Source of the DNA: Melioribacteraceae bacterium
GTDB lineage: Bacteria; Bacteroidota; Ignavibacteria; Ignavibacteriales; Melioribacteraceae
NCBI GenBank assembly: GCA_026983955.1
Contig: JALSTB010000094.1
Span: 1-53,206, forward strand
Reading direction: 5' to 3'
Length of the DNA stretch: 53,206 nucleotides
The position numbers and the translations under genes are program-made. The number at the start of each line of letters is the position of its first letter. Positions within the stretch are counted from its first letter, which is position 1. A model generated the notes under the pieces. The model was not told where the DNA came from. It searched no databases and worked only from the letters and a program-made list of their open reading frames with translations. This document shows positions 44,430 to 53,052 of this stretch, in pieces.

Positions 44430-45561
44430 TTAACTCCGCATAAATTAATTCCGCCGCTCTTTTTGAGGCTCCTCCGGAACCAAGTTTTAATTTAAGTTTT
44501 TCTAATTCAGATTTTATTAATTCATATTTTTTAATGTCGGTTAGAATAGATTTTGCTACCGAATATATTTTTTCGGTATTCATATCTTTTTGAATTAATT
44601 CGGGAATCACTTTTTTATCCAGAATTATATTCGTCATTGAAATCGAATCGATTTGGATTAATTTTTTCCCGATAAAATAAGTAAGAGCGCTTGTTGAATA
44701 AACAACAACAAACGGAAGCTCGGCCAAACCCGCTTCCAAAGTGGAAGTTCCGGATTTTATTATTCCGAATTTTGCATGTTTTAACAAATCGTAAGTATGC
44801 TCTTTAATAATTGTAAAGTTTTTTTCGTGGGTAAGTTTGCGAAAAATATTTTCATCAATATTTCCCGAACAAGCTACAACCGTTTGCATATTCAATTCAT
44901 TGGATAAACGGACAGCAGCTTTAATTGATTCCGGGAATATTTTTTCGATTTCCTGTTTTCTGCTACCGGGCATTAAAAGTAACAAATCCTTGTCATCATC
45001 CAAATTGAATTTTTCGTACAGTCCGGATTTACTTAAATAAGGATATGAGTTCATCCGTTCGACCAAAGGGTGTCCTGCATACTCAACTTTTACGCCGGCA
45101 TTTTTATAAAGTTCTTTTTCGAAAGGGAAAACAACAATCATCAAATCAATTAAGCGCTTCATTTTTTTTAATCTGCCTTTTCCCCAAGCCCAAACTTGCG
45201 GTGAGATGTAGTAGATTATTTTAACATCCAGTTTTTTGAGTTTTTTAGCCAAACTCAAATTAAACCCCGGGTAATCGATTAAAACAACTTCTTTAATATT
45301 TCGATTTTTAACTACATTCAACAATTCTCTTTGCACTTTTCTGATAAACGGAATATGCTTAACAACTTCTGCAAATCCGAGAAACGCCATATCCTTAATG
45401 TGATATTGTGGGGTCATGCCGGCTTCAATCATCTTTTGTCCGCCGATACCGTAAATTTGCAGCGCAGGGTCAATGTTTTTCAATTCCGCAATTAAGGCGG
45501 AGCCGTGTAAATCACCGGAATCTTCACCGGCTATTATCATAATCGGTTTTTTAACGTTCAA
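44422..45561 (-). CDS. lpxB: Lipid-A-disaccharide synthase
   Basis: GT-B glycosyltransferase (GT19) joining UDP-diacylglucosamine and lipid X. The 379 residues match the family: IMIIAGEDSGDLHGSALI at the N-terminus, YGIGGQKMIEAGM, the MAFLGFAEVVKHIPFI helix, the VLIDYPGFNLSLAKKL strand, YYISPQVWAWGKGR and the UDP-binding LLLMPGSRKQEIEKIFP and KSGTSTLEAGLAELPFVVVY. Start is TTG at 45561, overlapping the upstream methyltransferase by 4 bases. The lpxA, lpxC and lpxD genes are not in the window. Confidence 0.97.
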   Translation of the reverse strand: MNVKKPIMIIAGEDSGDLHGSALIAELKNIDPALQIYGIGGQKMIEAGMTPQYHIKDMAFLGFAEVVKHIPFIRKVQRELLNVVKNRNIKEVVLIDYPGFNLSLAKKLKKLDVKIIYYISPQVWAWGKGRLKKMKRLIDLMIVVFPFEKELYKNAGVKVEYAGHPLVERMNSYPYLSKSGLYEKFNLDDDKDLLLLMPGSRKQEIEKIFPESIKAAVRLSNELNMQTVVACSGNIDENIFRKLTHEKNFTIIKEHTYDLLKHAKFGIIKSGTSTLEAGLAELPFVVVYSTSALTYFIGKKLIQIDSISMTNIILDKKVIPELIQKDMNTEKIYSVAKSILTDIKKYELIKSELEKLKLKLGSGGASKRAAELIYAELND

Positions 45562-46148
45562 TTCGTTAAATATTGTATTATTAAAATTATTGTTATTATG
45601 GTAAATGCTTGCAAACTTCTTTTTTCCGACCGGAGACCGGCCTTAACATTCAGCGGTGGTTGAGTTACCGTTTTGTCCTTGTATTTTGTTATTCTGGGGA
45701 CCAACCGGGGCACGGCATCAAGATACTTTTCATACGCTTTGCCGAAAGTACCTTTCAAATATTTTTCCTCGGCAATTATGATTAATCGGTACTGGATGTA
45801 GAAAAACACCAATGCAATAATTTGTAAGTAAGGGAACAAGGCATTTGACATAATTCCGGTTCCAACGTACAATAAAATATTCCCGAGGTAAAGCGGATTT
45901 CTTACATGCCCGAAGGCACCGCTAATTACCAAATAAGTTCCGCCCACATCACCCGTAGTGCGGGTTTCGCTTCCGGCATAGGAAACTCCCCATAATCTGA
46001 ATCCTTCGCCGGTCAATGCGATAACGAAGCCGGTAATTAAACTTTGCAACGTTGCTTGCTGAAAAATCAACATGATTATCAAGAAGGGAATAGGGGTATA
46101 ACTTCTGTACTTAAAAACCGTTTTCGATATTTTTTCCAAATTGTTCAA
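45558..46148 (-). CDS. Isoprenylcysteine methyltransferase-like (ICMT/PEMT) membrane protein
   Basis: A 196-residue membrane protein with about five helices, of the ICMT/phospholipid methyltransferase superfamily. The diagnostic part is FGHVRNPLYLGNILLYVG (SAM-binding region) followed by RLIIIAEEKYLKGTFGKAYEKYL, a pattern that in this superfamily is close to EExxL...Y.xY. The start is TTG at 46148 with AGGAG 7 bases upstream. It overlaps lpxB by 4 bases, so it may methylate a lipid or isoprenoid of envelope metabolism; bacterial substrates of this family are poorly known. Confidence 0.85.
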   Translation of the reverse strand: MNNLEKISKTVFKYRSYTPIPFLIIMLIFQQATLQSLITGFVIALTGEGFRLWGVSYAGSETRTTGDVGGTYLVISGAFGHVRNPLYLGNILLYVGTGIMSNALFPYLQIIALVFFYIQYRLIIIAEEKYLKGTFGKAYEKYLDAVPRLVPRITKYKDKTVTQPPLNVKAGLRSEKRSLQAFTIITIILIIQYLTN

Positions 46149-46892: not shown

Positions 46893-49800
46893 TTATGCAG
46901 AAACTTTAATATCTTCATTGAATCTTACTCCTACCAATTTCGAAACCCCTTCCTCTTGCATTGTAACGCCGTACATTGTTTCGGTTGCTTCCATGGTACG
47001 TTTGTTATGTGTAACAATAATAAATTGAGTGTTCTTGCTGAATTCTTTTAACAAGTTGGTAAACCGGTCTATGTTTGCATCGTCCAACGGTGCATCCACT
47101 TCATCCATAATGCAGAAGGGACTCGGTTTAACCAAATAAATTGCAAACAACAAAGCCGTGGCGGTAAGAGTTTTTTCTCCACCTGAGAGAAGTTCGATTG
47201 AGGTTGGGCGTTTGCCTTTTGGTTTTGCTATAATTTCGATTTTTGCTTCTAACGGGTCAACGCCTTCTTCCAAACGTAAATCGGCTTCGTCCCCGGGATT
47301 AAACAGAGTGCGGAAAATTTTTATGAAATTTTGTCTTATTTCTTCGAATGTGCTCAAAAATATTTGTTGGGCTGTTTCGTTTATCTCGTTAATTGTGTTG
47401 ACCAAATCTTTTTCGGATTCTATCAAGTCATCCCTTTGTTTCAAAAGGAAATCCAAGCGTTGTTTTTCTTCTTCATATTCATCAAAAGCAAGCAGATTGA
47501 TTTGCCCCAAATTTTTAATACTGTTTTTCAAACGGTGGACTTCCGCCGAAACGTGGTCGAAGTCGAATTCGTCCAGGTCATCAAAATGTTTGAATTCCAA
47601 ATCCATTGCATATTCGTCGCGGATTGTCTCCACAAGGTTTTCCAATCTTATACCTGTCTCGCTGTTTTTCAACTCTATGTCGTGAATTTTGTCCGATATT
47701 ATTTGCCGCTCGTTTCTTAACTCCGAAAGTTTGTTTTCCAATTCGTTCATTTCGGATTTCATTCCTGTAACTTCGGAATCGAGTTCTATTTTAATTTTTT
47801 CCAAAGCGGATTTGGAGTTTTCCAATTCCTCGAACATTGCCGAAGCGGAATCTATTGTTTCTTTCAAACGGGAAATCTCTCCGTGGGCGGAGTTTATTTC
47901 GTTTTTTCTTCTTTCAATGGTTTCTGCGATTGTTTTTTTAGATTCTTCGGAACGGTTGATACTGTTAATTATATTTTGCAATTCGCCTTTCAAGCGCTCC
48001 AACTGCAACCGTTTTGCGTTTAATTCGGTTACTGCTTTTTCATAATCATCTTCCACATTTCGAACCCCGGATTCCAAACCGGCAAGTTCTTCGCCGGTAT
48101 GTGTTTTTTCGGCTTTAATTGAATTGAGTTTTTGGGATAATTCCGTAATTTCAAATTCGTATTGGCCTATTTGATTAATTAACTCTTGAATTTCATTCTG
48201 TATTTTTTCTATTTCTTCGGAGGCTTTCGATTTTTCGAATTCGAATTTTGCAATTTGTTTTTCAATGTTATTTATATCATTCAGAATTATGTTGCCTTGA
48301 TCGGATAAAACTTTCAAATCGATTTGTGCAATTGCATTTTCTTTTTCTGCAATAAGTTTTTGAATATATTTTAAGTTTTCTTCAAGTTTCGGATATTCTT
48401 CTTTTAATTGTTCAAGTAATTTTTTTCTTCCGAAAAGTGTTTCATCAACTTTCGCTTTGGAGCCTGCTTCCACAATTCCGTTATTTGTTATAATATCGCC
48501 TTCCAAAGTGGCAAAGTTGAAATCGGGATATTTTTTATGAAATTGAATGGCATCGTCAAGAGTTTCCACCACTGCGGTTTTATGTAAAATTTTACGGAAG
48601 TACGGCAACCAGTTGTTATTTGTTTTAACCAAACCGGAAGCCCAGCCGATAAATCCGTTTTGTTTTTCTATTTTATTTGCGGTTCTTTTTTCGGTGAAGT
48701 TGAGTATTTTTTTGATTACGCCTTTGGAGTTCAATCCGTTGCCCAACAGAAAGAAAGAAGCTTTGCCTAAATCGTTTTTCTTTAGGTATTCAACCGCTTT
48801 ATGTAGATCATCCAGATCGGCAATCAATAAGTTGTTCAGCACGTTTTTAAGCGCTACTTCAAGAGCAAGTCTGTATTTCTCATCGGTATTTCCGACGTCG
48901 GCAAATAGGGTTTTCTCCTTATCCGTCCAGCCCTCGCTTTCCAGCAGTATTTTCGAACCGCCCGAAATTCCTTCCAAATTTGTGATAAGCGATTGGTAAA
49001 ATTCTATTTTGTTTTTGAGATTTGTCAGGTTTCCTTTTTCATTGAGTTCTTTTTCTTTAAGGGTTTTCAGTTCTTGTTCGAGTTTTTCTTTTTCTTGAAG
49101 CCTGGTAGTGTATAAAGTTTCCGATTTCTTAAGCTCTTCGGTTACTTTCGCTTTTTCGGTTTCAAGATTTTCAAGGTAGCCTACGCTTTTTGCAATATCG
49201 GAAGTTAAAGTTTGAATTTTTTCGTTTAATTTTTCTATCGTTTTGTTTGCGTTTGTTTTATAATTTTCAAGCGAACCGAGTTTCGTCTCCAGTTCGTTGT
49301 AATTTTTCAGCAATTCGAGGGAAGATTCGTTCTTGGTCTTTAATACGTTTCGGAATTCTTCAAGCTTAATTTTTTTATCTTCAACGGTTTTAGCCTCGGT
49401 CTCAATTACTTGTGAAAGTTCTTCAATTTTTTGCTCGACCCGGGATCTTTCTTGAAAATAGCCGTTAAGCCGCTCCTCAGTTTCGGTTTGTTGGATTTTC
49501 AGCTCTTCAATATCGGATTTATAATTTTCTATATTTTCGGTAAGCGATTTAATGCGTTCTTCGGCAACGGAAATGTTTTTACGGTTTGTATGAATTTTAT
49601 CGGAAATTTCCGAAAGTTGGTTGAATTTTGCTCTCAGTACTTCTTCTTTTTCGGAGATTTTATTTCTGTACTCGATTAATTTATCTTCGAGGTTTTTAAT
49701 GTTTTCATCAATTCCGTTTTTCTTTTGCAATAAGTTGTTTTTTTCTTCGGCAAGGGAATTTCTTTGAATTGTGAACAAAGCAAACTCACGTTCAGCCAAA

Positions 49801-50483
49801 TTCAATTCATTTTCCCGCAGTTCGGCTTGCAATCTGTTGTATTTTTCCGCTTTTTTTGTTTGACGTTCGAGCGAGCGGACGTTTTTCTCAATCTCGGAAA
49901 TAATATCGTTAACGCGGGTCAAATCGTTTTTTACTTCGTCGAGTTTTTTAAGCGAAAGTCTTCTGCGCAATTTGTATTTGTTAACACCGGCGGCTTCTTC
50001 GAACATTTTCCTTCGCTCGTCTGTCCGGTTGCTCAAAATGTTTTCAACCATTTTAAGTTCGATTACGGAATAAGCATTTGTGCCCATCCCGGTATCCATA
50101 AACAGATTTGTTATGTCTTTCAACCGGCAAACGTTTTTGTTCAGAAGGTATTCGCTTTCACCCGAACGGAAAATGCGGCGTGTGATGGTAATTTCGGAAT
50201 ATTCTGAAGGAAGTACACCTTTATCGTTGATAAAGGTCATTGATACTTCCGCCATTCCCATCGGTTTACGGTTGCGTGTGCCGTTAAAAATTACGTTTTC
50301 CATCTTGTCGCTGCGGAGCGTACTGCTTTTTTGTTCACCCAAACACCATCTGATTGCATCGACAATATTGGTTTTACCGGAACCGTTTGGCCCAACCACG
50401 CCGGTTATTTCACGGGAAAAATCCAATTTTGTTTTATCTGCAAAAGATTTAAACCCGAATATTTCTAATTTTGATAAAAACAA
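46893..50483 (-). CDS. smc: Chromosome segregation protein SMC
   Basis: SMC ATPase that with ScpAB loads on DNA and compacts or aligns sister chromosomes. The 1196 residues are standard. The N-terminal head opens FLSKLEIFGFKSFADKTKL with Walker A GPNGSGKT at 31-38. Two long coiled coils (about 170-500 and 670-1000) flank a hinge at about 505-665 (GLNSKGVIKKI region). The C-terminal head has the signature LSGGEKT at 1099-1105, Walker B CIMDE at 1124-1128 and DAPLDDANIDRF. The start is TTG at 50483, with AAGG upstream, and fits the usual N-terminus. scpA and scpB are not in the window. It lies 16 bases downstream of the glycosidase-like gene. Confidence 0.98.
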   Translation of the reverse strand: MFLSKLEIFGFKSFADKTKLDFSREITGVVGPNGSGKTNIVDAIRWCLGEQKSSTLRSDKMENVIFNGTRNRKPMGMAEVSMTFINDKGVLPSEYSEITITRRIFRSGESEYLLNKNVCRLKDITNLFMDTGMGTNAYSVIELKMVENILSNRTDERRKMFEEAAGVNKYKLRRRLSLKKLDEVKNDLTRVNDIISEIEKNVRSLERQTKKAEKYNRLQAELRENELNLAEREFALFTIQRNSLAEEKNNLLQKKNGIDENIKNLEDKLIEYRNKISEKEEVLRAKFNQLSEISDKIHTNRKNISVAEERIKSLTENIENYKSDIEELKIQQTETEERLNGYFQERSRVEQKIEELSQVIETEAKTVEDKKIKLEEFRNVLKTKNESSLELLKNYNELETKLGSLENYKTNANKTIEKLNEKIQTLTSDIAKSVGYLENLETEKAKVTEELKKSETLYTTRLQEKEKLEQELKTLKEKELNEKGNLTNLKNKIEFYQSLITNLEGISGGSKILLESEGWTDKEKTLFADVGNTDEKYRLALEVALKNVLNNLLIADLDDLHKAVEYLKKNDLGKASFFLLGNGLNSKGVIKKILNFTEKRTANKIEKQNGFIGWASGLVKTNNNWLPYFRKILHKTAVVETLDDAIQFHKKYPDFNFATLEGDIITNNGIVEAGSKAKVDETLFGRKKLLEQLKEEYPKLEENLKYIQKLIAEKENAIAQIDLKVLSDQGNIILNDINNIEKQIAKFEFEKSKASEEIEKIQNEIQELINQIGQYEFEITELSQKLNSIKAEKTHTGEELAGLESGVRNVEDDYEKAVTELNAKRLQLERLKGELQNIINSINRSEESKKTIAETIERRKNEINSAHGEISRLKETIDSASAMFEELENSKSALEKIKIELDSEVTGMKSEMNELENKLSELRNERQIISDKIHDIELKNSETGIRLENLVETIRDEYAMDLEFKHFDDLDEFDFDHVSAEVHRLKNSIKNLGQINLLAFDEYEEEKQRLDFLLKQRDDLIESEKDLVNTINEINETAQQIFLSTFEEIRQNFIKIFRTLFNPGDEADLRLEEGVDPLEAKIEIIAKPKGKRPTSIELLSGGEKTLTATALLFAIYLVKPSPFCIMDEVDAPLDDANIDRFTNLLKEFSKNTQFIIVTHNKRTMEATETMYGVTMQEEGVSKLVGVRFNEDIKVSA

Positions 50484-50499
50484 ATTGCTACCTTAATTT

Positions 50500-53052
50500 T
50501 TATAAAAATTGATATTGTTTAACGGCATTCAGAATGTAGAACAAACTGTATTCGGAAAGTTGAAAATATAAAATTATTGCACCTATAACCAATATAGTAA
50601 AAATAAATCCGTAAAAGTAAACTTGAAAAGGACGAACATCGAAGATTACATAAATGCCTTTTAACAATCTTTGAACTAACCAAATGTTAAAAATGATAAT
50701 GGCAGTGTACAAATACCAGTTGATAACATCCGCCATTAGAATTCTGTAGAGCACAAGTTCCAAGGGGAGTAGAATTGTCAGCGGTAAAAACGCCCAAATA
50801 ACAACATAGTAAATACTGGAAAATATAACCCGGTTTTTAATAAAAAATGAAGCAAATTTGAAAATGACCGAGATAAGTAAAAATCCTAAAACGGAAAAAA
50901 TAAAAAAGACAATAAATGCATCCGTGGGATTCCAAGCCAAGGAGCTCACAAATTCTACATAGTCCGGTGAACCGAGAGCGATTAAAGATTTTTCGATAAG
51001 GATATTATTTTTCAAAAAGAATAACAAGTTTGTGAGAAACAAAGCATGTGAACCGGAAAGTAAAATCATCAGAAAGTTGGTGTTAAATCCCGATAAAATC
51101 CTTTGATCCCGGATATCCGCATAAAAATTGTAAGGTCTTAGTAATGCTCTTATTGCGTCTTCACGGAATTTCTTTTTTGAGTTAATCAAAACTCCGAGCA
51201 GAAGCGAAAGTACCAAACTGGCGATTATAAAAAACAGCGGTGAATCGTCCAATTTATTTCCAAGTGGAATGTTAATGCGTTTTCCGTCTCTAACTCTGGC
51301 TTTGATGATGTGGAAAGAAGCCCGGTCCGATTTACGGTCGGCTGCAAGCAAACCGATTTTGTATTCATTTTCGTCATTAAAGCCGGAAAACATGGGTGCA
51401 AAATCACCTTTGTAATCGAACATCGAATTGAGGAAGTAACCTTTCAGTTTGTATTTTTCACTTTGTGAAATTATATCGATAAAATATTTTGCTTGGGCTT
51501 CGTAAGAAAATTGATTTAAGTAACCGTTGGTTTCCCCGTTATAATTCGGATAAGTGGCTTCACTTATAAAATAGTTAAGCTCTCCGGATTTATTAAAATC
51601 ATCCGGTAAGGTTTTGGCATATAATTCAATTCCGTAGAAATCTAAATCCGGAATCGTATCGTGTTGAATACCAACGAAAGAAGCGTATGCAGGTAGACCG
51701 CTGCTTTTCTTAACAATCCGGGCAAGGTGTGCAATAAATTCCGAATTCGATTTATTGTCAGGCAAGTATGAACTACCGACGCCTATTCCGGCAACCATCG
51801 GGAAGCGCTTGTAATAAGCGGATATTTGGGCAACATAGGTTTCCGCCCGGGTTAAGAAATCTTCTTGACGTAAAAATTGGGCAGGTACGGAATTAAGCGG
51901 GATTTCGATGAAAGCGAATAACCCGTAATCTTCGCAAAGCTTAAGCAAATACGGATGGGGTACGGCTTTGGAAAACCGGACGGAGTTAAAGCCCGCATTT
52001 TTAATTATTTGCAAATCACGTTTGAAAACGGAATAAAGGTCTTCGGTATAAAAAATATCGGAGGAAGGAATGTAAGTAACGCCCTTAAGCTTAATTTTTT
52101 TCCCGTTTATATTAAAGTTACGGTTTGCATAGCTGATTTTCCTGATGGGAATATCACGTTTGAATTCGTCAATTATATTTTCACCATCCGTGAGTACCAA
52201 TCGTATAAAATAATTGGCTCTGTTTTTCAAATCCCAGAACTCTGTAGAGGAAAGGGTAATGTTTACTTTTTTGCTTATTTTATTTGAAGTCCTAAATTTT
52301 ATATTAAAATCCTTAGAGTACAAAATTGTTTCTTTGTTGGGATCGTAAAATTGCAAATAGCATTTATAATTAATGTTTTTGCCTTCCGGATTTTTCGATT
52401 CGTCAACCAAATCGAAATTAACCGTCAATTTAATTTTGGCTTTTTTCCGGCTCAAAGTAGTAAATGAATATCTCAAATTTTCAACACGCGTTAAGGGGAT
52501 TAATTTAATAAACAAATCACCTGTTATTCCGCCTTTTGAATCCGGAAACAGAAATCTCGGTTTAAGGGGAATTGTATTTTTCGAATCGAGTTTATGGTAA
52601 ACTTTTATTTTGATTACGTTCGGTACATCGTAATTCAGAATATCCTTTGGAATTTCGAACTCGAAAGGATAACCCCCGCCGGCATGTTTGTAGAGGGAAA
52701 CGTTGTTTATAAAAATTTCCGATGCGTAATTTATTCCGAATGAGACCAAGTCAAATTTGTAGTTTAATATTTGCTCTCCCGAAAAATTAAATTCTTTCCG
52801 GTAGATAACAGAATTTTCGTTAGTGAATATCGAGGGAAGGGAAACATCGATTTTATTTTCGGGATCATCCTGAAGGAAAAGTTCCCACCCTTTGTTTAAG
52901 GGAATAATACCTCTTGTGGAAGTAATGTCGAAAAACACAGAATCGGCTTGCCCGTAATCGGGAGACGGCAATTCAATGATTTTAATCTGAGCAAAACTTG
53001 CGGAAAAAGTAAATAAAAAGACAAAAAGAAAAAATTTCTTATTCTTAAGCAT
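50500..53052 (-). CDS. GH2-like glycosidase-fold protein fused to a Yip1-like membrane domain
   Basis: An 850-residue exported membrane protein. Residues 1-21 are a signal peptide. Residues about 48-190 form a GH2 sugar-binding-type jelly roll (INYASEIFINNVSLYKHAGG), 190-305 an immunoglobulin-like domain, and 315-595 a TIM-barrel-like domain starting INGKKIKLKGVTYIPSS and RDLQIIKNAGFNSVRF. A possible nucleophile is E498 in FISEATYP. The acid/base expected after VAGIGVG is missing: the usual N-E pair is replaced by S-S at 427-428. About six membrane helices fill residues 604-832, recalling Yip1-like domains. The ATG follows a candidate promoter; smc follows 16 bases downstream. Substrate unknown, and it may be a binding rather than catalytic protein. 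Confidence 0.75.
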   Translation of the reverse strand: MLKNKKFFLFVFLFTFSASFAQIKIIELPSPDYGQADSVFFDITSTRGIIPLNKGWELFLQDDPENKIDVSLPSIFTNENSVIYRKEFNFSGEQILNYKFDLVSFGINYASEIFINNVSLYKHAGGGYPFEFEIPKDILNYDVPNVIKIKVYHKLDSKNTIPLKPRFLFPDSKGGITGDLFIKLIPLTRVENLRYSFTTLSRKKAKIKLTVNFDLVDESKNPEGKNINYKCYLQFYDPNKETILYSKDFNIKFRTSNKISKKVNITLSSTEFWDLKNRANYFIRLVLTDGENIIDEFKRDIPIRKISYANRNFNINGKKIKLKGVTYIPSSDIFYTEDLYSVFKRDLQIIKNAGFNSVRFSKAVPHPYLLKLCEDYGLFAFIEIPLNSVPAQFLRQEDFLTRAETYVAQISAYYKRFPMVAGIGVGSSYLPDNKSNSEFIAHLARIVKKSSGLPAYASFVGIQHDTIPDLDFYGIELYAKTLPDDFNKSGELNYFISEATYPNYNGETNGYLNQFSYEAQAKYFIDIISQSEKYKLKGYFLNSMFDYKGDFAPMFSGFNDENEYKIGLLAADRKSDRASFHIIKARVRDGKRINIPLGNKLDDSPLFFIIASLVLSLLLGVLINSKKKFREDAIRALLRPYNFYADIRDQRILSGFNTNFLMILLSGSHALFLTNLLFFLKNNILIEKSLIALGSPDYVEFVSSLAWNPTDAFIVFFIFSVLGFLLISVIFKFASFFIKNRVIFSSIYYVVIWAFLPLTILLPLELVLYRILMADVINWYLYTAIIIFNIWLVQRLLKGIYVIFDVRPFQVYFYGFIFTILVIGAIILYFQLSEYSLFYILNAVKQYQFL

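What the first reader, a model, noticed from the sequence alone, without database searches (positions are those of the whole stretch)
50500..53052. Membrane-fused GH2-like protein apparently lacking the catalytic acid/base
The protein carries a signal peptide, sugar-binding, Ig-like and barrel modules like a beta-galactosidase/glucuronidase, but ends in about six membrane helices instead of being a soluble enzyme. At the position where GH2 enzymes have N-E after the GxGxG-like strand, the residues are S427-S428, while a possible nucleophile E498 remains. Inference: a glycan sensor, scaffold or transport-linked binding protein rather than a hydrolase. It is co-oriented with smc, 16 bases upstream.
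Basis: partly seen in the sequence, partly recalled or inferred. Interest (0 to 1): 0.7.

Follow-up and report, generated by a model that had tools for sequence, protein, structure and literature searches.

The report
Dead sugar-enzyme fused to membrane protein
The gene encodes a protein that looks like a sugar-cutting enzyme but has lost the parts that cut and is joined to a membrane domain of unknown role; nearly every bacterium in this class carries exactly one copy, usually right beside a chromosome-organising gene, so it is probably a basic envelope part that databases would mislabel as a beta-galactosidase.

Summary
ORF 50500-53052 (-) is an 850-aa protein: signal peptide, three-domain GH2 core (model superposes on beta-glucuronidases, Z 26), then six predicted membrane helices. 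S427-S428 sit on the GH2 N-E acid/base pair, E498 on the nucleophile. This is a monophyletic family of 850-900 aa fusions, found in 75/79 genomes of its family, 140/146 of its order, 271/294 of its class and in four families outside the class, almost always single copy. Of 102 aligned orthologs none holds both catalytic glutamates; E498 is Q, G, S, R or K elsewhere, even within the genus, so it is not a conserved nucleophile. The membrane part is the best conserved; it is a distant Yip1 relative, also related to DUF4271 of Bacteroidia. In one genus (7/7 genomes) the GH2 part is gone and the membrane part remains. smc follows directly in 22 of 30 sampled families; the exceptions form one clade plus one stray. 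Most likely it is a non-hydrolytic housekeeping envelope receptor or scaffold. Ligand and partner are unknown. New variant of a known kind (membrane pseudoglycosidase).

The parts
50500..53052 (-). GH2-like/Yip1-like fusion gene, 850 aa plus stop
   Evidence: orthologs
52990..53052 (-). signal peptide, residues 1-21 (SFA|Q22); Q22 is invariant in 24 orthologs
   Evidence: cleavage site inferred
52483..52938 (-). GH2 sugar-binding-like jelly roll, residues 39-190
   Evidence: Pfam PF02837; structure; borders approximate
52138..52482 (-). Ig-like GH2 middle domain, residues 191-305 (least conserved part)
   Evidence: Pfam PF00703
51259..52137 (-). GH2-like TIM barrel, residues 306-598
   Evidence: Pfam PF02836; structure
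51769..51774 (-). S427-S428 at the position of the GH2 N-E acid/base pair
51559..51561 (-). E498 at the GH2 nucleophile position, not conserved beyond the order
50503..51258 (-). Yip1-like membrane domain, residues 599-850, six predicted helices
51085..51183 (-). predicted cytoplasmic loop between helices 1 and 2 (residues 624-656), the most conserved stretch of the protein
46893..50483 (-). smc, conserved downstream neighbour, TTG start
   Evidence: TIGR02168 1013.8 bits; synteny

Best explanation
It is an inner-membrane pseudoglycosidase. Shown by sequence and modelling: a GH2 three-domain ectodomain that lacks the residues of the retaining GH2 mechanism, joined to a six-helix Yip1-like membrane domain with a strongly conserved Arg/Asp-rich loop; single origin, single copy, near-universal in the class. 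Inferred: the ectodomain lies in the periplasm and was recruited as a rigid binding module for a periplasmic glycan or protein; it passes that contact to the membrane domain, which does the conserved job (receptor, channel or assembly factor) with a cytoplasmic or membrane partner touching the loop. It is probably expressed with smc and neighbouring housekeeping genes as a constitutive envelope protein, not as part of a sugar-utilisation locus.
For: GH2 fold over the whole ectodomain. Catalytic positions in 102 orthologs: acid/base E in 15, nucleophile E in 31, both in 0, whereas N-E is 11/11 in ordinary GH2 enzymes from the same bacterial family. Structural positions D295, N356, R359, D471, G510 and D546 are kept, so the fold is under selection. 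Family monophyletic against 11 GH2 proteins, support 0.993. Present in 75/79, 140/146 and 271/294 genomes of family, order and class, nearly always single copy. Membrane part better conserved than ectodomain in most orthologs and retained alone in one genus, 7/7 genomes. Yip1 profile hit in 26/49 members, best 1.4e-7. smc immediately downstream in 22 of 30 sampled families.
Against: No ligand, partner or phenotype is known. E498 is kept through much of the own order. Acid/base E is kept in members of four families. The window protein scores 17.9 bits against Yip1, below the Pfam cut-off of 28.6, and no solved structure matches the membrane part. Neighbouring mrp, tpiA and HAD-phosphatase genes are also conserved in the own order, so closeness to smc may be gene-order inertia. 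'Binding module' is inference.
Confidence: 0.65

Rival explanations
1. It is still a glycoside hydrolase, using E498 plus another acid or water (non-canonical mechanism) on an envelope glycan.
For: E498 is kept in most of the own order; E383 is E or D in 97 of 102; fold intact.
Against: E498 is Q or G within the family and S, R, K, A or T outside it, often R or K where acid/base E remains (f14, f20, f24), so no pair is ever complete. E383, D471 and D546 are also conserved in ordinary GH2 enzymes, so they are not a new catalytic set. The GH2 His and Trp of the -1 subsite are lost in many members.
Confidence: 0.1
2. The ectodomain is only a passive appendage or fold remnant; the membrane domain alone has the function.
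For: The ectodomain is lost in one genus while the membrane part stays next to smc; ectodomain identity is lower.
Against: The full three-domain ectodomain is kept in essentially all other orthologs, with structural residues invariant or nearly so over 102 sequences and open frames almost throughout.
Confidence: 0.15
3. It acts together with SMC, tying chromosome organisation or segregation to the envelope.
For: Same-strand smc directly downstream across 22 families, including four outside the class, mostly within a few bases.
Against: A clade of eight families has smc elsewhere yet keeps the gene; no domain suggests DNA or SMC binding; mrp, tpiA and others are also neighbours.
Confidence: 0.1

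Closest known systems
GH2 beta-glucuronidase/beta-galactosidase (PF02837-PF00703-PF02836; e.g. PDB 8dhe, 3cmg, 6ncw)
   Same: Three-domain core, residues 39-590, Z 25-26; structural residues kept
   Different: Acid/base N-E is S-S; no ortholog has both Glu; fused to a six-helix membrane domain; single-copy housekeeping-like distribution
Yip1 domain (PF04893; eukaryotic YIPF proteins and bacterial 'YIP1 family proteins')
   Same: Weak but full-length profile match; about five helices after a conserved segment predicted to be cytoplasmic
   Different: Below the gathering score in the window protein; large ectodomain and an extra first helix. A review states that no function is reported for prokaryotic members (PMC6682643)
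DUF4271 (PF14093) of Bacteroidia
   Same: hhalign probability 84, E 8e-6, collinear from the first helix through the conserved loop onward; reversed or shuffled controls at most 4.8
   Different: No GH2 part; upstream of a HemD-like gene in all 8 loci read, not smc
Animal membrane pseudoglycosidases: Klotho (GH1-like co-receptor), 4F2hc/rBAT (GH13-like transporter subunits)
   Same: Dead glycosidase fold outside the cell on a membrane protein (analogy; 4F2hc/rBAT from own knowledge, Klotho as pseudoglycosidase in PMC10628560)
   Different: Different GH family, kingdom and membrane part; not homologous as fusions

Membership tests
GH2 (fold) | Jelly roll, Ig-like and TIM-barrel domains | tested here: met
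GH2 (active enzyme) | Acid/base Glu of N-E after strand 4 | tested here: not met
   S427-S428
GH2 (active enzyme) | Nucleophile Glu on strand 7 | tested here: inconclusive
   E498 aligned with it but replaced within the genus and family
GH2 (active enzyme) | Glycosidase activity | not testable with these tools
   needs assay
Yip1 (PF04893) | Pfam gathering score 28.6 bits | tested here: not met
   17.9 bits in the window protein; best 24.8 among ten members scanned. Filed as a distant relative, not a member
Yip1 (PF04893) | Full-profile collinear match, about five helices after a cytoplasmic segment | tested here: met
   profile positions 3-170 of 173; 26/49 members match; topology predicted only
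DUF4271 (PF14093) | Pfam gathering score 29.7 bits | tested here: not met
   4 of 49 members at best E 0.04 and none in the window protein; no match in the own genome; distant homology only

The most novel reading that the evidence does not exclude
A phylum-wide membrane protein family (Yip1-like/DUF4271-like) with an important unknown task, which in one class and a few relatives carries a dead GH2 ectodomain as its periplasmic sensing module and is expressed with smc: a first handle on what bacterial Yip1-type proteins do, namely acting as receptors or channels gated by an envelope glycan, possibly reporting to the chromosome or cell cycle.
Probability: 0.15. Interest if true: 0.8.

Novelty: new variant of a known kind. 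Interest (0 to 1): 0.56.

Why it matters
Pipelines will call these proteins beta-galactosidases (the window protein passes the Pfam GH2 barrel cut-off) and count them as polysaccharide-degrading capacity, although no sampled member has a complete catalytic pair. More broadly, an almost universal single-copy gene of a whole class with no assigned function, joining a dead glycosidase to a bacterial Yip1-like domain for which no function is reported, gives a concrete way to ask what bacterial Yip1-type proteins do.

Tried and rejected
Ordinary active GH2: rejected by residues. One-off pseudogene or assembly fusion: rejected, same fusion in hundreds of genomes. Alternative catalytic pair in the barrel: no invariant acid that ordinary GH2 enzymes lack. 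T9SS link (SprA-like gene next door in f9, f16, f17; PorP/SprF-like near DUF4271 in two loci): noted, not tested. PDB search with the membrane part found only weak cytochrome c oxidase subunit 2 hits by sequence (E 0.007) and no fold match (best Z 5.3); a missing match does not show a new fold. Literature searches for DUF4271, Yip1 operons and GH2 pseudoenzymes gave nothing on this protein, and the Melioribacter roseus genome paper does not mention it in its main text; only open-access papers are covered. A genome-contig scan found just two close loci; phyla outside the own one were not searched.

Full report
Observation. The ORF at 50500-53052 on the minus strand encodes 850 aa and ends 16 bases before the smc start at 50483. 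Residues 1-21 look like a signal peptide ending SFA|Q, and Q22 is invariant in 24 orthologs. Pfam finds the GH2 barrel above its cut-off and the other two GH2 domains weakly; NCBIfam ranks beta-glucuronidase and beta-galactosidase models. An AlphaFold model (pLDDT 80) superposes over residues 39-590 on GH2 beta-glucuronidases at Z 25-26. Hydropathy averaged over the alignment gives six segments after residue 600, matched by six long helices in a separate model of the membrane part (pLDDT 92).

Catalytic residues. A profile of 24 orthologs aligned by HMMER to PDB 8dhe and 3cmg puts S427-S428 on the N-E of 'WGLFNEL'. Profile-profile alignment to eleven GH2 proteins from the same bacterial family gives the same pair against 'WGLMNE' and places E498 on the nucleophile of 'ISEYG'. 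In 102 orthologs from 29 bacterial families the acid/base column holds E in 15, the nucleophile column E in 31, and no sequence has both. E498 is Q in a same-genus ortholog (L004) and G in another of the family (L006). In f14, f20 and f24, where acid/base E survives in some members, the nucleophile position is R or K in those members. The GH2 His after RxxH and the strand-8 Trp are also eroded, while D295, N356, R359, D471, G510 and D546 stay. This pattern is a kept fold with a dismantled active site.

Distribution. Orthologs were found in 75 of 79 genomes of the family, 140 of 146 of the order, 271 of 294 of the class, and 82 of 296 sampled over the phylum, the ones outside the class in families f32, f35, f50 and f62. 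Nearly every genome has one match, in an open frame of about 830-970 aa. The ectodomains form one clade against GH2 enzymes (support 0.993).

Membrane part. It is more conserved than the ectodomain in most orthologs. The best conserved stretch of the protein is the predicted cytoplasmic loop between helices 1 and 2 (consensus RRFRE..RAL.RPYNFFADIRDQRI). Twenty-six of 49 members match Yip1 (PF04893), best E 1.4e-7, but the window protein and the ten members scanned with scores lie below the gathering score. DUF4271 of Bacteroidia is a further distant relative: hhalign probability 84 and E 8e-6, against at most 4.8 for reversed or block-shuffled controls. It was not found above cut-off in the own class genomes listed. 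In genus g75 of family f12 all seven genomes carry only the membrane part; in the locus read in full it lies just before smc.

Neighbourhood. smc follows directly in all 30 distinct close orthologs and in 54 of 80 divergent loci, i.e. in 22 of 30 families, among them the four families outside the class. The families without it (f9, f16, f17, f21, f25, f26, f28, f30) form one clade (support 0.998), with one stray in f6; the twelve such genomes checked all have smc elsewhere. Upstream neighbours in the own order include tpiA and mrp (names from own reading of the sequences). The adjacency is therefore ancestral and far beyond chance, but it sits in a housekeeping block and does not by itself show a joint function.

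Interpretation. The evidence shows a monophyletic, vertically distributed pseudoglycosidase-membrane fusion. That it binds a periplasmic ligand and acts as receptor or scaffold is inferred, by analogy with membrane pseudoglycosidases of animals and from the suggestion that prokaryotic Yip1 relatives may be receptors or transporters (PMC6682643, which also states that no function is reported for them). Rivals are residual catalysis, a passive ectodomain, and a direct SMC link; each is weighed in its field.

Limits. No activity, ligand, partner, topology or phenotype was measured. Many of the genomes are probably metagenome-assembled. Other phyla were not searched. The literature search covers open-access papers only.

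Noticed in passing
window 45558-46148 (-): Isoprenylcysteine/phospholipid-methyltransferase-like protein, best NCBIfam hit the Leptospira lipid A 1-phosphate methyltransferase LmtA (E 9e-22, below cut-off), directly before lpxB and near lpxK: possibly a lipid A phosphate methyltransferase outside spirochaetes.
   Followed up: no
window 50483 and orthologs: smc starts with TTG in nearly all close orthologs read, in the same sequence context.
   Followed up: no
L161, L166, L168, L178, L180, L182, L183, L187: DUF4271 of Bacteroidia lies directly upstream of a HemD-like (uroporphyrinogen-III synthase-like) gene in all 8 loci read; a PorP/SprF-like gene follows in two (names from own reading).
   Followed up: partly
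L072, L078, L079, L096: SprA-like gene (type IX secretion) lies divergently upstream of the fusion gene in families f9, f16, f17 (name from own reading).
   Followed up: no
L074 7921-8802 and L154-L160: Genus g75 of family f12: GH2 ectodomain lost, membrane part alone kept; other f12 genera searched lack both.
   Followed up: yes
L096: In G180 the fusion gene looks broken: pieces in different frames with a TGA inside; decay or an assembly error.
   Followed up: no
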